In this document: positions 5,100 through 35,987 of the stretch, piece after piece
Numbering within the stretch: position 1 is the first letter of the stretch
Layout: every line of letters starts with the position of its first letter
DNA from: Clostridiales bacterium
GTDB lineage: Bacteria > Bacillota > Clostridia > Lachnospirales > Lachnospiraceae
DNA: 38,166 bases
Assembly (NCBI GenBank): GCA_020860715.1
Contig: JAJBTU010000034.1
Coordinates: 1-38,166 of the forward strand
Direction of reading: 5' to 3'
The notes under the pieces: generated by a model
The model's database searches: none
What the model was told of the DNA's origin: nothing
What the model saw: the letters and a program-made list of their open reading frames with translations, nothing else
Translations under genes and position numbers: made by a program

Positions 5100-6056
5100 T
5101 CAGTGTAATTTCCGGTTTTTCTGCTGTTCTCCTTTTTGCTGCTGCAGGCGTCTCTGCTTCCACTGTTCCAGCAATCCGATAATCGTTTCTTCCATCTTCC
5201 TCGGCGTATAATCTTTCGGAAAATACTGTCTGAGGACATCCGATGTAAGCATGACCCGATCCTGCGGCGGTTTCTTCTCTTCTGACATAATGGCAAGCAT
5301 GGAATCCTCTGTTAATCGCCCTTCCTGACTGAATTGTTTCAAACGCTGTGCCTGTGACAGCGATGGTGACGTCTGCTCATAATCCATCGTTTCAATCAGC
5401 ATCTGCTGTTCCTCCGGTTTCAGAAACGAAAGCTCATACGCCGGGTTAAAGGCCACTTTCTTTTCATCCACCATATCAAGAAGCGGCGGGATGAGTTCCG
5501 TCAGACGGATGTAACGCTGAACCTGTGACTTGCTCTCCTTTGCTTCACTTGCAACCTGATTTACAGCCCAGGAAGACTTCTCCCCAACTTGGGGAGAAGT
5601 TAAATCCGAACGTTCTCCCTGATGCTTTATCGCTTCCAGTTTCATCTTGAACGCAAACGCTCTCTCACTCGGCAGGATCGTCTCCCGCTGCAGATTACTG
5701 TCCACCATCAACAACACCGCCTCGTCGTCATCCAGATCCCGTACAATCACTGGTATCGTCTCCTTTCCCGCCAGTTCGCTTGCCCTGTGCCTCCGATGTC
5801 CTGAAACGATCTCATAACCACCCTCCGGCAACGGCCGGGCGATAATCGGAACCAGAACGCCATATTGCTGCACACTTTCAACGGTCTCCATCATCCTCGC
5901 ATCATCCAGGACCTTAAACGGATGATTCTTAAAAGGATGCAGTTCCGATAACGCGATCTCCTGCACGCGCTCCCTCGCATCATCCTCACGGCTCTCATCC
6001 GTCGTAAAAAGATCGTCAACGGATGCAAGCTTTATATTCTTCGCGCTGCTTTTCAT
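5100..6056 (-). CDS. parB: ParB/Spo0J-family partition protein
   Basis: A 318-residue ParB family DNA-binding CTPase that would load on parS-like sites and be moved by ParA to segregate the element. The N-terminal domain has the family strings LHPFKNHPFKV, VSGHRRHRASELAG and VDSNLQRETILPSERAFA (about residues 40-140). A helix-turn-helix follows (KESKSQVQRYIRLTELIP). The C-terminal tail is Gln/Lys-rich. AGAGGTGA precedes the ATG at 6056. It overlaps parA by 41 bp, so the two are translationally linked. The segment after QGERSDLTSPQVGEKS is encoded by a perfect inverted repeat. Confidence 0.92.
   Translation of the reverse strand: MKSSAKNIKLASVDDLFTTDESREDDARERVQEIALSELHPFKNHPFKVLDDARMMETVESVQQYGVLVPIIARPLPEGGYEIVSGHRRHRASELAGKETIPVIVRDLDDDEAVLLMVDSNLQRETILPSERAFAFKMKLEAIKHQGERSDLTSPQVGEKSSWAVNQVASEAKESKSQVQRYIRLTELIPPLLDMVDEKKVAFNPAYELSFLKPEEQQMLIETMDYEQTSPSLSQAQRLKQFSQEGRLTEDSMLAIMSEEKKPPQDRVMLTSDVLRQYFPKDYTPRKMEETIIGLLEQWKQRRLQQQKGEQQKNRKLH
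5576..5600. repeat. Perfect 10-bp inverted repeat within parB
   Basis: ACTTCTCCCC, loop AACTT, GGGGAGAAGT. It lies in a loop region between the ParB core and its helix-turn-helix. It could be a binding site for ParB or another regulator, or simply the codons of a conserved TSPQVGEKS peptide. Confidence 0.6.
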
Positions 6057-6834
6057 AACTGATCACCTCTTTCGTAAATTCCCGGTAGGCCGCAGCCACC
6101 TTGCCTTTCGGATCGTATCTGTAAATACTTTTTCCTTCTGCAGTCGCTTCCTTCGCACGCACGGAATATGGAATTTCCGTATCAAACACGTTTATGCTCT
6201 CGCCATAGGTATCCCGAACCAGAAAAGCAATTTCTCTGGCAAAATTGGTTCTCTTATCTGCCATAGCAAGAAGGATGCCGTCAATCTGCAAATCCGGATT
6301 GATCTGTCGGCGAACTCTTTTCACCGTATACAGGAGCTGCTCAAGTCCTTTCACCGGCAAGTATTCACATTGGACCGGTATGATAATTCGATTTGCCGCA
6401 GCAAGAGCATTGACCGTCAGCATCCCAAGAGAAGGCTGACAGTCAATCAGAATATGCGTATATTGATTCTTTACTGTATCCAGATACTGTTTCAAGACCG
6501 TTTCCCGGCTGATGATATTTACCAGTGACATTTCCAAACCAGACAGCTGGATATCCGCCGGCAACAGATCCACGCCCTCCGGATGATGCAAAATTCCCTC
6601 TCCCGGCTCCAACTCCTGTTCAGTCAGAATCTTTCCCAGTACAGTTGAGATAGTCACAGGGAGCTGATCCGGATAAGGATTGCCCATTCCGACTGTTAAG
6701 CTGGCCTGGGGATCAAAATCCACCATCAGAACCTTATTCCCTTCCTGCGCCAGTCCAATGCCAAGATTCATACAGGTGGTTGTCTTAGACACACCACCTT
6801 TCTGGTTTACAAGTGCGATAATCTCTGCGTTCAT
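6016..6834 (-). CDS. parA: ParA/Soj-family partition ATPase
   Basis: A 272-residue ParA ATPase. The deviant Walker A is NQKGGVSKTTT (near residue 10), followed by VDFDPQASLTVGMG and Walker B-like HILIDCQPSLGMLT. With ParB it would segregate the circular form of the element. GGAAGGAG precedes the ATG at 6834. It starts 21 bp after the DUF3789-type gene and overlaps parB by 41 bp. No separate promoter was recognised; transcription may start upstream of the small gene. Confidence 0.93.
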   Translation of the reverse strand: MNAEIIALVNQKGGVSKTTTCMNLGIGLAQEGNKVLMVDFDPQASLTVGMGNPYPDQLPVTISTVLGKILTEQELEPGEGILHHPEGVDLLPADIQLSGLEMSLVNIISRETVLKQYLDTVKNQYTHILIDCQPSLGMLTVNALAAANRIIIPVQCEYLPVKGLEQLLYTVKRVRRQINPDLQIDGILLAMADKRTNFAREIAFLVRDTYGESINVFDTEIPYSVRAKEATAEGKSIYRYDPKGKVAAAYREFTKEVISYEKQREEYKACIR

Positions 6835-26692: not shown

Positions 26693-26766
26693 TAGCGGAA
26701 GGGAGACTTGAACTCTCGACACCACGGGTATGAACCGTGTGCTCTAGCCAGCTGAGCTATTCCGCC
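26693..26766 (-). tRNA. tRNA-Met (CAT)
   Basis: The minus strand folds as a full 74-nt cloverleaf: acceptor GGCGGAA/TTCCGCT (first pair G-U), D-arm GCTCAGCTGGCTAGAGC, anticodon stem CACGG/CCGTG around loop TTCATAC, T-arm with TTCAAGT. Anticodon CAT; discriminator A; CCA is not encoded. The paired first position argues against initiator tRNA, so elongator Met is likely, although a tRNA-Ile with modified CAT anticodon is not excluded. Confidence 0.92.
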
Positions 26767-26828: not shown

Positions 26829-26901
26829 TGGGGCCTATAGGGCTCGAACCTATGACCCTCTGCTTGTAAGGCAGATGCTCTCCCAGCTGAGCTAAGACCC
26901 C
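26829..26901 (-). tRNA. tRNA-Val (TAC)
   Basis: A 73-nt cloverleaf on the minus strand: acceptor GGGGTCT/AGGCCCC (one G-U), D-arm GCTCAGCTGGGAGAGC, anticodon stem TCTGC/GCAGA with loop CTTACAA, T-arm loop TTCGAGC. Anticodon TAC. No encoded CCA. It is first in a two-tRNA operon with tRNA-Met. Confidence 0.94.
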
Positions 26902-31593: not shown

Positions 31594-34500
31594 TTATCTG
31601 AAGTACTCTACGCCCGACTCAAAGATTTTCAGGTCCTGCTCTCCATAAATGTTGACAGCCACGGATTCCCCGCGGCGCTCCGCGTGCGCCATCTTGCCAA
31701 ATACTCTTCCGTCCGGGCTGGTGATGCCCTCGATTGCGAAATAGGAACCGTTGACGTTCCACATCTCATCGCTCACGTCTACGCTGCCATTGATATCGCA
31801 GTACTGCGTCGCCACCTGACCGTTGCCAAACAGGCGCAGCAGCCATTCCTTGCCTGCCACGAAACGGCCTTCGCCGTGGGAAGCCGGATTCGTGTAAACG
31901 CCGCCCAGTTCCGCGCCGGCCAGCCACGGGGACTTGTTGCTGACTACCTTTGTGTACACCATCTTCGAAATATGGCGGCCGATCGTATTGAACGTCAATG
32001 TCGGAGAGTTCTCCGTCTGCCCGGTGATCTCGCCGTTCGGCACGAGGCCGAGCTTGATCAGCGCCTGGAAACCGTTGCAGATGCCGAGCGCAAGACCGTC
32101 GCGCTCATTTAACAGCTTCGTCACCGTTTCTTTTATCTTCGCGTTCTGGAACGCGGTCGCGAAAAACTTTGCGGAACCGTCCGGCTCATCACCTGCGGAA
32201 AAGCCGCCCGGGAACATGATGATCTGCGCCTGGCTGATCGCTTTTTCAAATACATCCACAGATTCACGGATGTCCTGCGCGGAAAGGTTGCGGAACACCT
32301 GCACGTCTACCTCGGCTCCCGCGCGCTCAAACGCCTTTTTGCTGTCATATTCGCAGTTCGTACCGGCAAAGACCGGGATAAACACACGAGGCTTCGCCAC
32401 CTTGTGTTTGCAGATATACAGGTTTCCCTCGCCGAGCTGCCATACACCTTTTTCAGTCATTCTTCCGCCGGAATCTTTTCTTCCCGCAAAGAAATAGCTT
32501 CTCGGACCATTCACCGGATTGCCGTCGATGTCCAGACCGCCGCCGACGGTCGGGATGCCGGAATCCGTCTTAAATACTTTCTCCAGCGTACCGGTCCACG
32601 CTTTGTACGCCTCATCCAAAGGAATCTTTACATCGCGGTATTCCAGAATGCCGGTGTCCGTTACCTCGCCGATCACGGTGTAGGTGATCGCCAGTTTCGA
32701 AACCGCGCCGTCCGGAACCTCCGCGACGATATCGCCGAAACCCGCCGTAAACAGATCTCTCTCATCCACGCTGTGCTCGATCTTAAAGCCAAGGCCGTTG
32801 CCGAACGCCATCTTTGTGAGCGCCGCCGCAAGTCCATTGCCGTCCAGCGCGTAAGCGGAAATGATGTTGCCCGCCTTGATATCCTGGTGGAACTTCCGGT
32901 ACTGGTCAAGCACCTGCTGATACTCCGGCAGGTCATATTCATTCTTCGCGATCTGAAGCAGCACCAGCCTGCTGCCCGCTTTTTTCAGTTCCGGCGTGAT
33001 CACAGTCCGGTCGTCCGCCACGTCTACCGCAAAAGAGACGAGTGTCGGCGGAACGTCGATCTCGCGCATCTGTGCGCCAGCACCGCCTTCTGTACCCTGT
33101 GTCCCGTCGTCCGCGAGTGTAAACGATCCGGACATGCTGTCCTTGCCGCCGATCGCCGGAAGTCCATAGCCGATCTGTGCGTCATATGCGCCGAGCAGCG
33201 CCGCGAACGGCTGACTCCAGCGCTTCGGATCCTCAGTCATGCGGCGGAAATATTCCTGGAATGTAAAGCGGATCCTGTCCGCCTCGCCGCCGTTCGCTAC
33301 GATGCGTGCGATGGACTCTGTCACCGCGTAAATTGCTCCATGGTACGGGCTCCAGCTCGAAAGCTGCGGGTCAAAGCCATAGCTCATCATCGTCACCGCG
33401 TGTGTTTTTCCGTCCATCACCGGAATCTTCGCTACCATCGCCTGCGTCTCAGTCAGCTGATATTTCCCGCCGTACGGCATCAGCACCGAGCCCGCGCCGA
33501 TGGAGCTGTCGAACATCTCCACAAGCCCTTTCTGAGAGCAGCAGTTCAGATCCGCGAGTGTGGAAAGCCATTTTTCACGGACATCGCCCACGTCCTCCCG
33601 GGCAAAATATTTCTCACTCTCCGACGGCATCTCTACGGCCACATTTGTCTCCTGATGCGCGCCGTTCGTATCGAGAAATGCCCTCGAAATATTGACGATC
33701 TCTTTTCCTCTCCAAAACAGCCGCAGTCTCGGCTCTTCCGTCACGACCGCCACCTTCGTCGCCTCCAGATTTTCCTCGGCGGCGTATTTCATAAATTCTT
33801 CCGCGTCCTTCGGATCTACGACCACAGCCATGCGCTCCTGCGACTCGGAAATCGCAATCTCCGTGCCGTCCAGACCCGCGTATTTCTTCGGCACCTTATC
33901 CAGATCAATGCGAAGCCCGTCCGCCAGTTCGCCGATGGCTACCGACACGCCGCCCGCGCCGAAATCATTGCATTTCTTGATCAGATGGCTTGCCTCCGGT
34001 CTGCGGAACAGTCTCTGCAGCTTGCGCTCTGTCGGCGCGTTTCCTTTCTGCACCTCCGCGCCGCACACCTCGATCGAGGCCTGCGTGTGTACCTTGGAGG
34101 AGCCTGTCGCGCCGCCGATGCCATCGCGCCCGGTGCGTCCGCCGAGCAGGATGATGATGTCGCCCGGATCGGAATTCTCCCGGATCACCGCGCTTCTCGG
34201 AGCCGCCGCCATCACCGCGCCAATCTCCATGCGTTTTGCCGCATAGTTCGGATGATAGACCTCTTTCACATAGCCGGTCGCCAGACCAATCTGATTGCCG
34301 TAGGAACTGTAGCCGTGCGCCGCCTCGCGCACCAGTTTCTTCTGCGGCAGCTTTCCTTTTAATGTCTCCGAAGCCGGAACCGTCGGGTCCGCCGCGCCGG
34401 TCACGCGCATCGCCTGATACACATAGGTACGCCCGGAAAGCGGATCGCGGATCGCGCCGCCAAGGCAGGTCGCCGCGCCGCCGAACGGCTCGATCTCTGT

Positions 34501-35697
34501 CGGGTGATTATGCGTCTCATTTTTAAAGTTTACCAGCCACTCTTCTGTGGCAGTCTCAGTTTTCTGCGCATTCACAGATTCTGAAGCAGCGGTGTCTCCG
34601 CCCGCCGTATCCTGTGCTTCGCCTGCAGCGCCGCAGGCATTTCGCTCGATCTCCACCGGCACCACGATACTGCAGGCGTTGATCTCGTCCGATTCTTCCT
34701 GGTCGTCCAGCTTACCTTCTTTTTTCAGCTTGCGCGCAGCCAGCGTCGCCAGATCCATCAGGCAGGGGAACTTATCAGCAGCCGCGCAATGCGCAGCATT
34801 CTCATCATCATGGCTGCGATCTGCCCTCGCCGGGTGGCATCCTCGCCCTTCGGGCGGGATATCCGCCGAGTCCTGACGAGGGGGCGCTACCCGTCTGTCC
34901 TTAAAAATTTCCTTGCGGTCCGCCAGATACTGCTCGTAAGTCTTTTCGATCGGAGCACGGTAAAAGCCGTCGTCAAATGCCACATCCTGAATCTCCGTGG
35001 AGAACGTCGTATGGCGGCAGTGATCGGACCAGTAGGTATCCAGCACGCGGATCTCCGTCACGGTCGGATCACGGTGCTCCTCCCCTGCAAAGTATTTCTG
35101 AATATGCAGAAAATCCCGGAACGTCATCGCCAGATTCAGCGAATCATACAGTTCCTTCAGCGCGCTCTCTTCCATTGAGATAAAGCCGTCAAACACAGCG
35201 ATATCCGCCGGCTCGTCAAACTGCGCTACCAGCGTCTCCGGCTTTTCAAATCCGGCCTCACGGGAATCCACCGGGTTGATGCAATGATGTTTGATCGCCT
35301 CAAAGTCCTCATCCGAAAGCTGTCCGGACACCACATACACGGTCGCGGAGCGGATGACCGGCTCTTCTTCCTCATTCAAAAATTTCACACACTGCTCCGC
35401 GGAATCCGCCCGCTGATCAAACTGCCCCGGCAAATACTCCACCGCAAACGCCCGCTCGTTTTCGGACAGCGGAAACTCTTCCCTGTATAAATCATCAACC
35501 GGCGGTTCAGAAAAAACCGTCCGGCACGCCTCTTCAAACACAGCGTCGGAGCAGTTCTCTACATCATAGCGGATCAGCTCCCGGACCTTTTTCAGCCCCT
35601 GCACCCCAAGATAACTTTTGATTTCATGTTCAAGTCCTTTGGCCGCAACCGCAAAACTGTCCTTTTTTTCCACGTACACTCTTCTAACTTTGCTCAT
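31594..35697 (-). CDS. purL: Phosphoribosylformylglycinamidine synthase (single-chain PurL)
   Basis: A 1367-residue enzyme for step four of purine synthesis (FGAR plus glutamine and ATP to FGAM). Domains in order: N-terminal PurS-like domain, linker, first AIRS-type synthase half (NFKNETHNHPTEIEPFGGAA), second half, and a C-terminal class I glutaminase with VFIPVFAGTNCEYDS, the Cys in ALGICNGFQALIKLG and the His in NPASHGEGRF. It is about 100 residues longer than typical clostridial relatives. One extra segment is encoded at 34774-34890, a second lies near 34540-34640. The ATG at 35697 has GGAGGG upstream; an earlier in-frame ATG at 35724 lacks one. The CapA-like gene follows 4 nt downstream. 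Confidence 0.93.
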   Translation of the reverse strand: MSKVRRVYVEKKDSFAVAAKGLEHEIKSYLGVQGLKKVRELIRYDVENCSDAVFEEACRTVFSEPPVDDLYREEFPLSENERAFAVEYLPGQFDQRADSAEQCVKFLNEEEEPVIRSATVYVVSGQLSDEDFEAIKHHCINPVDSREAGFEKPETLVAQFDEPADIAVFDGFISMEESALKELYDSLNLAMTFRDFLHIQKYFAGEEHRDPTVTEIRVLDTYWSDHCRHTTFSTEIQDVAFDDGFYRAPIEKTYEQYLADRKEIFKDRRVAPPRQDSADIPPEGRGCHPARADRSHDDENAAHCAAADKFPCLMDLATLAARKLKKEGKLDDQEESDEINACSIVVPVEIERNACGAAGEAQDTAGGDTAASESVNAQKTETATEEWLVNFKNETHNHPTEIEPFGGAATCLGGAIRDPLSGRTYVYQAMRVTGAADPTVPASETLKGKLPQKKLVREAAHGYSSYGNQIGLATGYVKEVYHPNYAAKRMEIGAVMAAAPRSAVIRENSDPGDIIILLGGRTGRDGIGGATGSSKVHTQASIEVCGAEVQKGNAPTERKLQRLFRRPEASHLIKKCNDFGAGGVSVAIGELADGLRIDLDKVPKKYAGLDGTEIAISESQERMAVVVDPKDAEEFMKYAAEENLEATKVAVVTEEPRLRLFWRGKEIVNISRAFLDTNGAHQETNVAVEMPSESEKYFAREDVGDVREKWLSTLADLNCCSQKGLVEMFDSSIGAGSVLMPYGGKYQLTETQAMVAKIPVMDGKTHAVTMMSYGFDPQLSSWSPYHGAIYAVTESIARIVANGGEADRIRFTFQEYFRRMTEDPKRWSQPFAALLGAYDAQIGYGLPAIGGKDSMSGSFTLADDGTQGTEGGAGAQMREIDVPPTLVSFAVDVADDRTVITPELKKAGSRLVLLQIAKNEYDLPEYQQVLDQYRKFHQDIKAGNIISAYALDGNGLAAALTKMAFGNGLGFKIEHSVDERDLFTAGFGDIVAEVPDGAVSKLAITYTVIGEVTDTGILEYRDVKIPLDEAYKAWTGTLEKVFKTDSGIPTVGGGLDIDGNPVNGPRSYFFAGRKDSGGRMTEKGVWQLGEGNLYICKHKVAKPRVFIPVFAGTNCEYDSKKAFERAGAEVDVQVFRNLSAQDIRESVDVFEKAISQAQIIMFPGGFSAGDEPDGSAKFFATAFQNAKIKETVTKLLNERDGLALGICNGFQALIKLGLVPNGEITGQTENSPTLTFNTIGRHISKMVYTKVVSNKSPWLAGAELGGVYTNPASHGEGRFVAGKEWLLRLFGNGQVATQYCDINGSVDVSDEMWNVNGSYFAIEGITSPDGRVFGKMAHAERRGESVAVNIYGEQDLKIFESGVEYFR
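34831..34893. repeat. Palindromic repeat copy A, in frame within purL
   Basis: A 63-bp element with complementary ends CGGGT/ACCCG and inner stems CCTCG/CGAGG and CGCCC-TTC-GGGCG. Its 34-bp core (34836-34869) matches copy B (35927-35960) at 33 of 34 positions. It encodes most of an extra 39-residue segment between FKDRR and KFPCLMDLA of PurL without breaking the frame. Confidence 0.8.
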
Positions 35698-35805
35698 TGA
35701 AGGCCCTCCTGTATCCCTTTGCATTTTCCGTCTGTTATCCCGCCGGAGACGAGAATTTCACGCATTATTTCTCATTTTCACAACAGAGTCTTTTCTCTCT
35801 TGCGA

Positions 35806-35834: not shown

Positions 35835-35899
35835 GAGAATCGCCCCAAACGCGAAGTGTTTTTCTTTATGGGCGGCTTGGCCTGCCCCTGCCGTGTTAT

Positions 35900-35923
35900 G
35901 CCCCCAATCTTCGATTGTAGGGC
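35900..35923. repeat. Hairpin next to palindromic repeat copy B
   Basis: GCCC...CAATC-ttc-GATTG...GGGC, a hairpin with an internal bulge just before copy B. It may be part of the same composite intergenic element. No T tract follows. Confidence 0.45.
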
Positions 35924-35925
35924 GC

Positions 35926-35987
35926 GGGCATCCTCGCCCTTCGGTCGGGATATCCGCCGAAGCGCAGCAAGAGGCGTTTCCATGCCC
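35926..35987. repeat. Palindromic repeat copy B, intergenic
   Basis: A 62-bp element with complementary ends GGGCAT/ATGCCC, carrying the 34-bp core shared with copy A inside purL. Arm sequences differ from copy A but remain complementary, so the fold is conserved. It lies in the 390-bp gap between purL and the G3E GTPase gene, upstream of the purL promoter. Confidence 0.8.

What the first reader, a model, noticed from the sequence alone, without database searches (positions are those of the whole stretch)
34774..34893. Palindromic element inserted in frame inside purL, with a second copy 1 kb away
PurL carries an extra segment of about 39 residues at 34774-34890 that consists mainly of a 63-bp palindromic element. 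A 34-bp core matches an intergenic element at 35927-35960 with one mismatch. Both elements are 62-63 bp, have complementary ends (CGGGT/ACCCG versus GGGCAT/ATGCCC) and keep inner stems although the arm sequences differ, so the fold is conserved. In-frame insertion of small palindromes into housekeeping genes is known from Rickettsia palindromic elements; I know of no described clostridial case. It would mean a mobile or REP-like element that tolerates translation.
Basis: partly seen in the sequence, partly recalled or inferred. Interest (0 to 1): 0.72.

Follow-up and report, generated by a model that had tools for sequence, protein, structure and literature searches.

The report
Mobile palindrome that hides inside genes
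A short hairpin-forming DNA element, filed in an RNA database as GA-cis, has spread to dozens of places in some Lachnospiraceae-type bacteria and often sits inside genes without breaking their reading frame, much like a case long known from Rickettsia.

Summary
PurL carries a lineage-specific in-frame insert of 114 nt net (38 residues). It is one copy of a dispersed double-hairpin element: 49 model matches in this genome at E<=0.1, 37 at E<1e-4, and 16-101 in each of 17 of 47 genus genomes. The unit is about 78 bp; the copy-specific arms of its first hairpin change almost only as Watson-Crick pairs. Copies without the nested module match Rfam GA-cis, RF02987, above cut-off. Here 105 of 158 copies lie inside ORFs, against 71% of random control positions; 78 of the 105 share one reading frame. 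In other genera of the family 2 of 53 GA-cis copies do. Empty sites in relatives show clean insertions, mostly without an evident target duplication. I read this as a mobile GA-cis variant that translation tolerates, working like Rickettsia palindromic elements. The mobilising machinery is unknown: no Y1 transposase or reverse transcriptase match in this genome.

The parts
31594..35724 (-). purL, intact ORF of 1376 aa that carries the insert in frame
   Evidence: NCBIfam TIGR01857 FGAM-synthase, 1703 bits
34777..34893 (+). GA-cis-type element (sense strand is +, so antisense to purL), with nested module B; the purL residues it adds read RVAPPRQDSADIPPEGRGCHPARADRSHDDENAAHCAAA
   Evidence: model R1 match, E 9.6e-6; absent from relatives; Rfam GA-cis 23.9 bits over model 1-88, below its cut-off of 34.7
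34778..34783 (+). arm L of hairpin 1 (GCAGCC)
   Evidence: inverted repeat
34788..34800 (+). inner hairpin AATGC-GCA-GCATT
   Evidence: read from the sequence in the register of alignment A3
34812..34817 (+). arm R of hairpin 1 (GGCTGC)
   Evidence: inverted repeat
   Evidence: present or absent at the same insertion in different species
34870..34877 (+). mini-hairpin GTCCTGAC
34878..34893 (+). conserved 3' part GAGGGGGCGCTACCCG (consensus GAGGGGGCGTTTCCA)
35841..35982 (+). second, intergenic copy upstream of purL: degenerate hairpin 1, module B interrupted by a further hairpin module, 3' part ending GAGGCGTTTCCA
   Evidence: core match; boundaries by comparison with the consensus (inspection; not a model match)
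35896..35926 (+). module D, TTATGCCCCCAATCTTCGATTGTAGGGCGCG, nested inside module B
   Evidence: similar arrangement in L051 and L110; L051's site is aligned

Best explanation
The purL segment is one copy of a mobile palindromic element, a derived lineage of the Rfam GA-cis family. The unit is a defined piece of about 78 bp (72-81 net at the measured sites without module B): hairpin 1 with copy-specific arms and an inner GCGAAGC-like hairpin, then a second small hairpin flanked by GA steps. Shown: it is dispersed; it has empty sites in close relatives; at most measured sites it is inserted as a whole unit with no evident target duplication; its net length is a multiple of three at the nine host-gene sites measured; and its arms stay Watson-Crick complementary while their sequence changes. 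Inferred: it spreads as a hairpin-forming DNA (or a short structured RNA copied into DNA) captured at breaks or stalled forks, with no coding capacity of its own. One stop-free, hydrophilic, nearly neutral reading frame lets hosts translate through it as a loop, so insertions into genes are kept. Module B, a 39-bp hairpin, is a secondary insertion into some copies (direction inferred), also a multiple of three, and is part of the purL copy.
For: Copy number: 37 own matches at E<1e-4; 17 of 47 genus genomes with 16-101 matches, 8 with 1-8, 22 with none. Empty sites: HflX, IleS, two in ASST, ABC ATPase, LeuS, Orn/Lys decarboxylase, purL of this genome, and purL of G010 at another site; net insertions 78 (five sites), 75, 72, 81 and 114. 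Covariation: 38 rows, 102 double-change cells against 27.9 in shuffles, score 0.351 against 0.106, slid controls at most 0.064. In 49 copies from loci not fetched with a structure model, arms mismatch at 0.59 of 9 positions on average, against 3.25 when arm R is taken from another copy. 5 G-U in 705 cells. At 29 orthologous insertion groups: 5 complementary double changes where 0.10 were expected; without the doubtful pair L059/L188, 3 where 0.065 were expected. Coding: 105 of 158 copies in ORFs of 200 aa or more, 78 of them in one frame, against 563 of 795 control positions. That frame is open in 10 of 10 copies checked and least hydrophobic. GA-cis of other genera: 2 of 53 in ORFs, controls 368 of 550. 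Module B present in one species and absent in another at L003/L176, L030/L170, L053/L184, L059/L188.
Against: No mobilising enzyme is identified and no transposition was observed. Most rows lie in loci fetched with the structure-aware model R1, and R2's seeds had been picked with an arm criterion, so that test is not free of ascertainment; the check used loci fetched otherwise. In one search the mini-hairpin register pairs in only 24 of 38 rows, and the measure 'further pair types' (24 against 20.7) is reached by 13 of 500 shuffles. Eight single arm changes exist among the 29 groups, and the finding pattern limits how far copies can diverge. Openness of frames is only slightly above composition-matched shuffles (4.84 against 4.37), and a second frame is also open in 10 of 10 copies. 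In 10 of 52 copies at least 7 nt of arm L recur within 30 nt after the 3' end, and the MBOAT copy could be read as a 12-bp target duplication, so 'fixed ends, no duplication' does not describe every copy. Whether module B was gained or lost at the four sites was not polarised.
Confidence: 0.82

Rival explanations
1. A functional structured RNA (sRNA or cis-regulator), as the Rfam entry type suggests, that happens to be multi-copy.
For: Rfam types RF02987 as 'Gene; sRNA'. In other genera 51 of 53 copies lie outside ORFs. The structure covaries, and elements diverge less than their flanks at orthologous sites (0.034-0.042 against 0.087; the finding pattern itself limits divergence).
Against: In this genus two thirds of copies lie inside ORFs, 88 of 105 antisense to them, and empty sites show gain in some lineages. 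G-U pairs are almost absent (3 of 798 cells), unlike what selection on RNA pairing usually leaves (general knowledge).
Confidence: 0.1
2. A REP/RAYT- or IS200-type element moved by a Y1 (HUH) transposase acting on the hairpin.
For: Hairpin structure and mostly no evident target duplication; Y1_Tnp present in 25 of 47 genus genomes.
Against: No match in this genome. 11 of 17 element-rich genomes against 14 of 30 others carry it (counted), so no clear association. No shared target word was seen by eye at the junctions.
Confidence: 0.12
3. A short structured RNA, reverse-transcribed and inserted by a resident reverse transcriptase.
For: Unit-like insertion, mostly no evident duplication, an RNA-like structured unit; RVT_1 in 15 of 17 element-rich genomes against 19 of 30 others (counted).
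Against: No RVT_1 match in this genome, nor in G011, which has the highest match count (G011 is only 71% complete). The near absence of G-U pairs does not suggest an RNA constraint.
Confidence: 0.2
4. The insert is kept because the peptide is useful to PurL.
For: One reading frame is used in 78 of 105 copies within ORFs.
Against: Similar peptides sit in many unrelated proteins, and the segment is absent from PurL of the 26 relatives seen.
Confidence: 0.03
5. Assembly or binning artefact.
For: Most genus genomes are fragmented assemblies (contig counts), and the records named are metagenome-derived by their titles.
Against: Same model matches in 17 genomes, shared insertions in 29 orthologous groups, and ORFs continuous through inserts.
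Confidence: 0.01

Closest known systems
GA-cis RNA, Rfam RF02987
   Same: Full-model matches above the gathering score for copies without module B in the six loci I chose: hairpin with inner hairpin, GACCTGCCGCCGA, small hairpin, GAGGGGGCG.
   Different: The variant here lacks the AGGAGG-like start seen in most printed copies of other genera, has more open frames (4.84 against 1.53 of six), is about 78 and not 88 nt, and sits in genes. The Rfam 15 paper lists the family in a table (passage read). I found no text describing it as mobile (search listings).
Rickettsia palindromic elements (RPE)
   Same: Dispersed palindromes inserted in frame into unrelated protein genes, with a conserved peptide (review PMC10969869, passages read).
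   Different: RPEs are about 150 bp, in Rickettsia. No sequence comparison with RPEs was made. Here arms differ copy by copy and a second module nests inside.
RU/ERIC small mobile sequences of enterobacteria found inside genes
   Same: Small repeats contributing reading frames to annotated genes (PMC2759123, abstract and outline read).
   Different: Described there as MITE-like; no sequence comparison was made, and covariation of arms is not in what I read.
Hairpin and double-hairpin elements of mitochondrial DNA (RHE)
   Same: Repetitive hairpins; mitochondrial repeats are also reported inside protein and rRNA genes (PMC2800124, passages read).
   Different: Organelles; no homology tested.
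Clostridiales-1 RNA, Rfam RF01699
   Same: Intergenic repeats sharing the module-B core give sub-threshold matches (24.1-35.8 bits against 48).
   Different: Below cut-off, so only a lead. A 2010 table marks it y/n/n, first column 'RNA?' (PMC2864571, passage).

Membership tests
GA-cis RNA (RF02987) | Covariance-model score at or above 34.7 bits | tested here: met
   Eight element matches in six chosen loci, 35.6-52.2 bits, for copies without module B
GA-cis RNA (RF02987) | Same score for the purL copy itself | tested here: not met
   23.9 bits, E 0.055, full model 1-88; not listed at gathering. For this copy the link rests on model R1 and its anatomy
Rickettsia palindromic elements (as a kind) | Palindromic, dispersed, in frame in unrelated genes | tested here: met
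Rickettsia palindromic elements (as a family) | Sequence homology to an RPE family | not tested
   No RPE sequence was fetched
MITE | Terminal inverted repeats and target-site duplication | tested here: inconclusive
   No duplication evident at most measured junctions (by eye); the main inverted repeat lies in one half of the unit; in 10 of 52 copies the arm recurs after the 3' end
REP/RAYT system | Resident Y1_Tnp/RAYT enzyme | tested here: not met
   No PF01797 match in the own genome
REP/RAYT system | GTAG or CGTC foot tetranucleotide | not tested
   Not scanned systematically

The most novel reading that the evidence does not exclude
A transposase-free mobile palindrome whose two arms are copied from each other at the DNA level (hairpin-primed or template-switch synthesis), so arm sequence drifts freely while pairing stays near perfect; one lineage of it changed from an intergenic element into one that translation tolerates and now lands in genes almost at random.
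Probability: 0.3. Interest if true: 0.88.

Novelty: new variant of a known kind. Interest (0 to 1): 0.75.

Why it matters
It would be a Firmicutes counterpart of the Rickettsia elements. It recasts an Rfam RNA family as, at least in this genus, a mobile palindrome. With 17 element-rich related genomes, many empty and filled sites and a sister state in which the element stays out of genes, it makes testable how a selfish repeat adapts to being translated, and whether palindromes keep their arms matched by selection or by templated copying.

Tried and rejected
Arms copied from the target at insertion: suggested by copies whose arm L recurs after the 3' end (10 of 52). Rejected as a general rule because the arms are not in the empty sites of HflX, ASST, LeuS or G010 purL (by eye); it may still hold for the MBOAT copy. 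Better read, by inference, as a truncated second unit: ArgJ of G007, G010 and G013 shows a lone arm-loop remnant.

Phage or plasmid carriage: no match among viral contigs (exact pattern), plasmids or phages (both with the purL copy as query).

Resident reverse transcriptase or Y1 enzyme as the driver: no clear association, none in the own genome.

Special enrichment of open frames: mostly composition.

PurL structure: the solved relatives found by sequence align from query residue 393 or later, beyond the insert, apart from one short weak piece before it, so the insert could not be placed. I ran no structure prediction.

Dropped rows and corrections: 69 of 122 matches were set aside (75-nt register, truncated or split by module B) and the rest deduplicated to 47; alignment A3 leaves out 9 of those 47 (eight copies with module B, and L243). 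In one search, 1 of 173 copies proved a duplicate; one search recounts 172, of which 14 had too little flank, so 158 were judged (one search had 159). Two of the 55 items were duplicates; one search recounts 53; the 368 of 550 controls include those two. The 53 are among the best-scoring matches listed, not a random sample. In one search, spans for HflX in G013 and G007 hit a wrong anchor and were not used, and three further spans found no anchor. One search lists purL of this genome and of G010 as a pair, but these are two different sites; searches do not list that pair.

Full report
What was claimed and what is there. The 34-bp core repeats at 34836-34869 and 35927-35960 with one mismatch and is not expected by chance in the window. 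purL (31594-35724, minus) is a single intact ORF scoring 1703 bits as FGAM synthase. Against G007, G010 and G013 the insert is 114 nt net, 38 residues. 46 of 47 genus genomes matched the PurL query. Among the 30 loci fetched, each from a different genome, 27 showed both anchors, the window's own included, and none of the other 26 has the insert.

The unit. A search with one own-genome copy gave 37 matches in this genome, in pieces that revealed a modular layout. From conserved parts the unit reads: A-[arm L]-AAACGC-GAA-GCGTTT-TTTCAT-[arm R]-GAYCTGCC-(optional module B)-GCCGA-[mini-hairpin]-GAGGGGGCGTTTCCA. An alignment of 21 copies without B gave model R1. R1 finds 49 matches at E<=0.1 in this genome, 37 of them at E<1e-4; the purL copy is C5:34777-34893. 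In the genus, 25 of 47 genomes match: 17 with 16-101 matches, 8 with 1-8, 22 with none (101 candidates were scored in each genome, so high counts are lower bounds). An exact core search in a collection of one genome for each of 84,980 species gave 33 stretches, all titled Lachnospiraceae or Clostridiales bacterium; the answer warns that records of the own genome may be left out.

It is GA-cis. Rfam names the unit: RF02987, 35.6-52.2 bits against a cut-off of 34.7 for eight copies without B in the six loci I chose. The purL copy itself scores 23.9, I think because module B splits it; this copy alone would not be called. In 250 genomes of the family, this one included, 18 have a match (17 over cut-off), by genus 18 of 249. 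The Rfam 15 paper mentions the family once, in a table (passage). The paper I believe described it first is recalled, not held. Searches for the name (one paper) and for a phrase of that paper's title (20 of 67 listed) gave no account of mobility.

Insertion. Empty sites are clean in HflX, IleS, two places of an arylsulfotransferase, an ABC ATPase, LeuS, purL of this genome and, independently, purL of G010 at another site. Net lengths at nine sites, Orn/Lys decarboxylase included, were 78 (five), 75, 72, 81 and 114. By eye no target duplication is evident at most of them and I saw no common target word. Host genes of own copies also include ArgJ, NAD synthase, class-III aminotransferase, riboflavin kinase/FAD synthetase, beta-galactosidase and an aminoacyl-tRNA editing protein.

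Module B. At four insertions the same unit has B in one species and not in another (own/G007 in an oxidoreductase-like ORF by my reading, own/G010 in the ABC ATPase, G009/G018, G015/G020). B is 39 bp in most copies and 38 in a few. A further hairpin module sits inside B in the intergenic window copy and in L051 and L110. Intergenic repeats sharing B's core resemble Clostridiales-1 RNA only below its cut-off.

Pairing. In 38 full-length rows 95.0% of cells pair (shuffled 82.0), 102 cells changed on both sides (27.9), and the covariation score was 0.351 (0.106); sliding partners by 1-3 columns gives at most 0.064. Against this: the mini-hairpin pairs in only 24 of 38 rows in the register given, and 13 of 500 shuffles reach the number of further pair types. 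Only 3 of 798 cells are G-U; in a second count of 47 rows, 670 of 705 cells are Watson-Crick and 5 G-U. These rows were collected with a sequence-only model, but most of their loci had been fetched with R1, which uses pairing, and the seeds were picked with an arm criterion. So I repeated the test on 49 copies from loci fetched by core pattern, BLAST or host protein or as stretches around such hits: own arms mismatch at 0.59 of 9 positions on average, arms taken from another copy at 3.25, with 41 distinct arm R sequences. At 29 orthologous insertion groups, one pair each, arms show 5 complementary double changes, all Watson-Crick to Watson-Crick, and 8 single ones over 261 arm positions, where 0.10 complementary doubles were expected. 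Pair L059/L188 contributes two doubles and may be a re-insertion; without it 3 remain against 0.065 expected. Most copies within ORFs are antisense to them, so the host transcript would not carry the GA-cis strand. With the lack of G-U this points, by inference, to DNA-level pairing or templated copying.

Coding. Of 172 distinct copies in hand, 158 had enough flank: 105 lie inside an ORF of 200 aa or more with 25 aa on each side, against 563 of 795 random positions in the same loci. ORF calls are mechanical, genes were confirmed by Pfam only for own-genome hosts, and orthologous copies count separately. 88 of 105 are antisense and 78 use one frame, read as (V/M)ETPPRCASAADR...ENASR.. or, with B...SADIPPEGRGCHPARADR... 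In ten 78-nt copies that frame is open in all ten and has the lowest hydrophobic share, 0.12; one other frame is also open in all ten. Open frames overall exceed shuffles only slightly. GA-cis copies of other genera behave otherwise: 2 of 53 in ORFs (Fisher p 4e-17 against this genus, copies not independent), with 368 of 550 control positions in ORFs. Most of those printed begin with AGGAGG or a near form, and 15 of them have on average 1.53 open frames of six. They occur in tandem 88 nt apart in G253, while tandem units in G011 are 78 nt apart.

Mechanism. Shown: dispersed, gained at empty sites, unit-like, in frame, covarying. Inferred: a hairpin-forming DNA, or cDNA of a structured RNA, captured without its own enzyme. 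Y1_Tnp has no match in this genome and is found in 11 of 17 element-rich and 14 of 30 other genus genomes (with 36). RVT_1 has no match here and is found in 15 of 17 and 19 of 30 (with 36). Neither explains the distribution. No phage, plasmid or viral-contig copy was found at the sensitivity used.

Known work. Rickettsia palindromic elements are the closest in behaviour: a review says nearly half of the first set lay in ORFs and calls similar events in other prokaryotes conceivable (PMC10969869, passages). Enterobacterial RU elements also occur inside genes (PMC2759123, abstract and outline). Literature searches for in-frame palindromes, in bacteria at large and in clostridia or Lachnospiraceae, gave nothing matching this element in the listings, which showed 5 of 5, 25 of 159, 12 of 29 and 12 of 27 papers. 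The library holds only open-licence papers, so this is not proof of novelty.

Noticed in passing
L066 (G010 purL), 2062-2139: purL of relative G010 carries its own independent in-frame 78-nt copy at a different site, absent from this genome, G007 and G013.
   Followed up: yes
L013, L022, L028, L029, L032, L033 (own genome): A second intergenic repeat family around the module-B core with a variable hairpin (by eye); in three of these loci (L028, L029, L033) it resembles Clostridiales-1 RNA below cut-off.
   Followed up: partly
G011:C52:2643-2876 (L381) and G011:C315 (L189): Head-to-tail arrays of the 78-nt unit (three, and at least two, units).
   Followed up: no
L301, L297, L302 against L211 (ArgJ): In G007, G010 and G013 a lone arm-loop remnant stands where this genome has a full unit plus a partial one, as if direct repeats had recombined.
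   Followed up: partly
window 34551-34646: Another segment of PurL (about residues 361-392) differs in length between this genome and many relatives; the aligned pieces break there.
   Followed up: no
window 5100-6834: Adjacent ORFs that look like ParB and ParA partition proteins (my reading of the translations), perhaps a mobile or plasmid-like stretch.
   Followed up: no
window 26693-26766 and 26829-26901, minus: Two tRNA genes.
   Followed up: no
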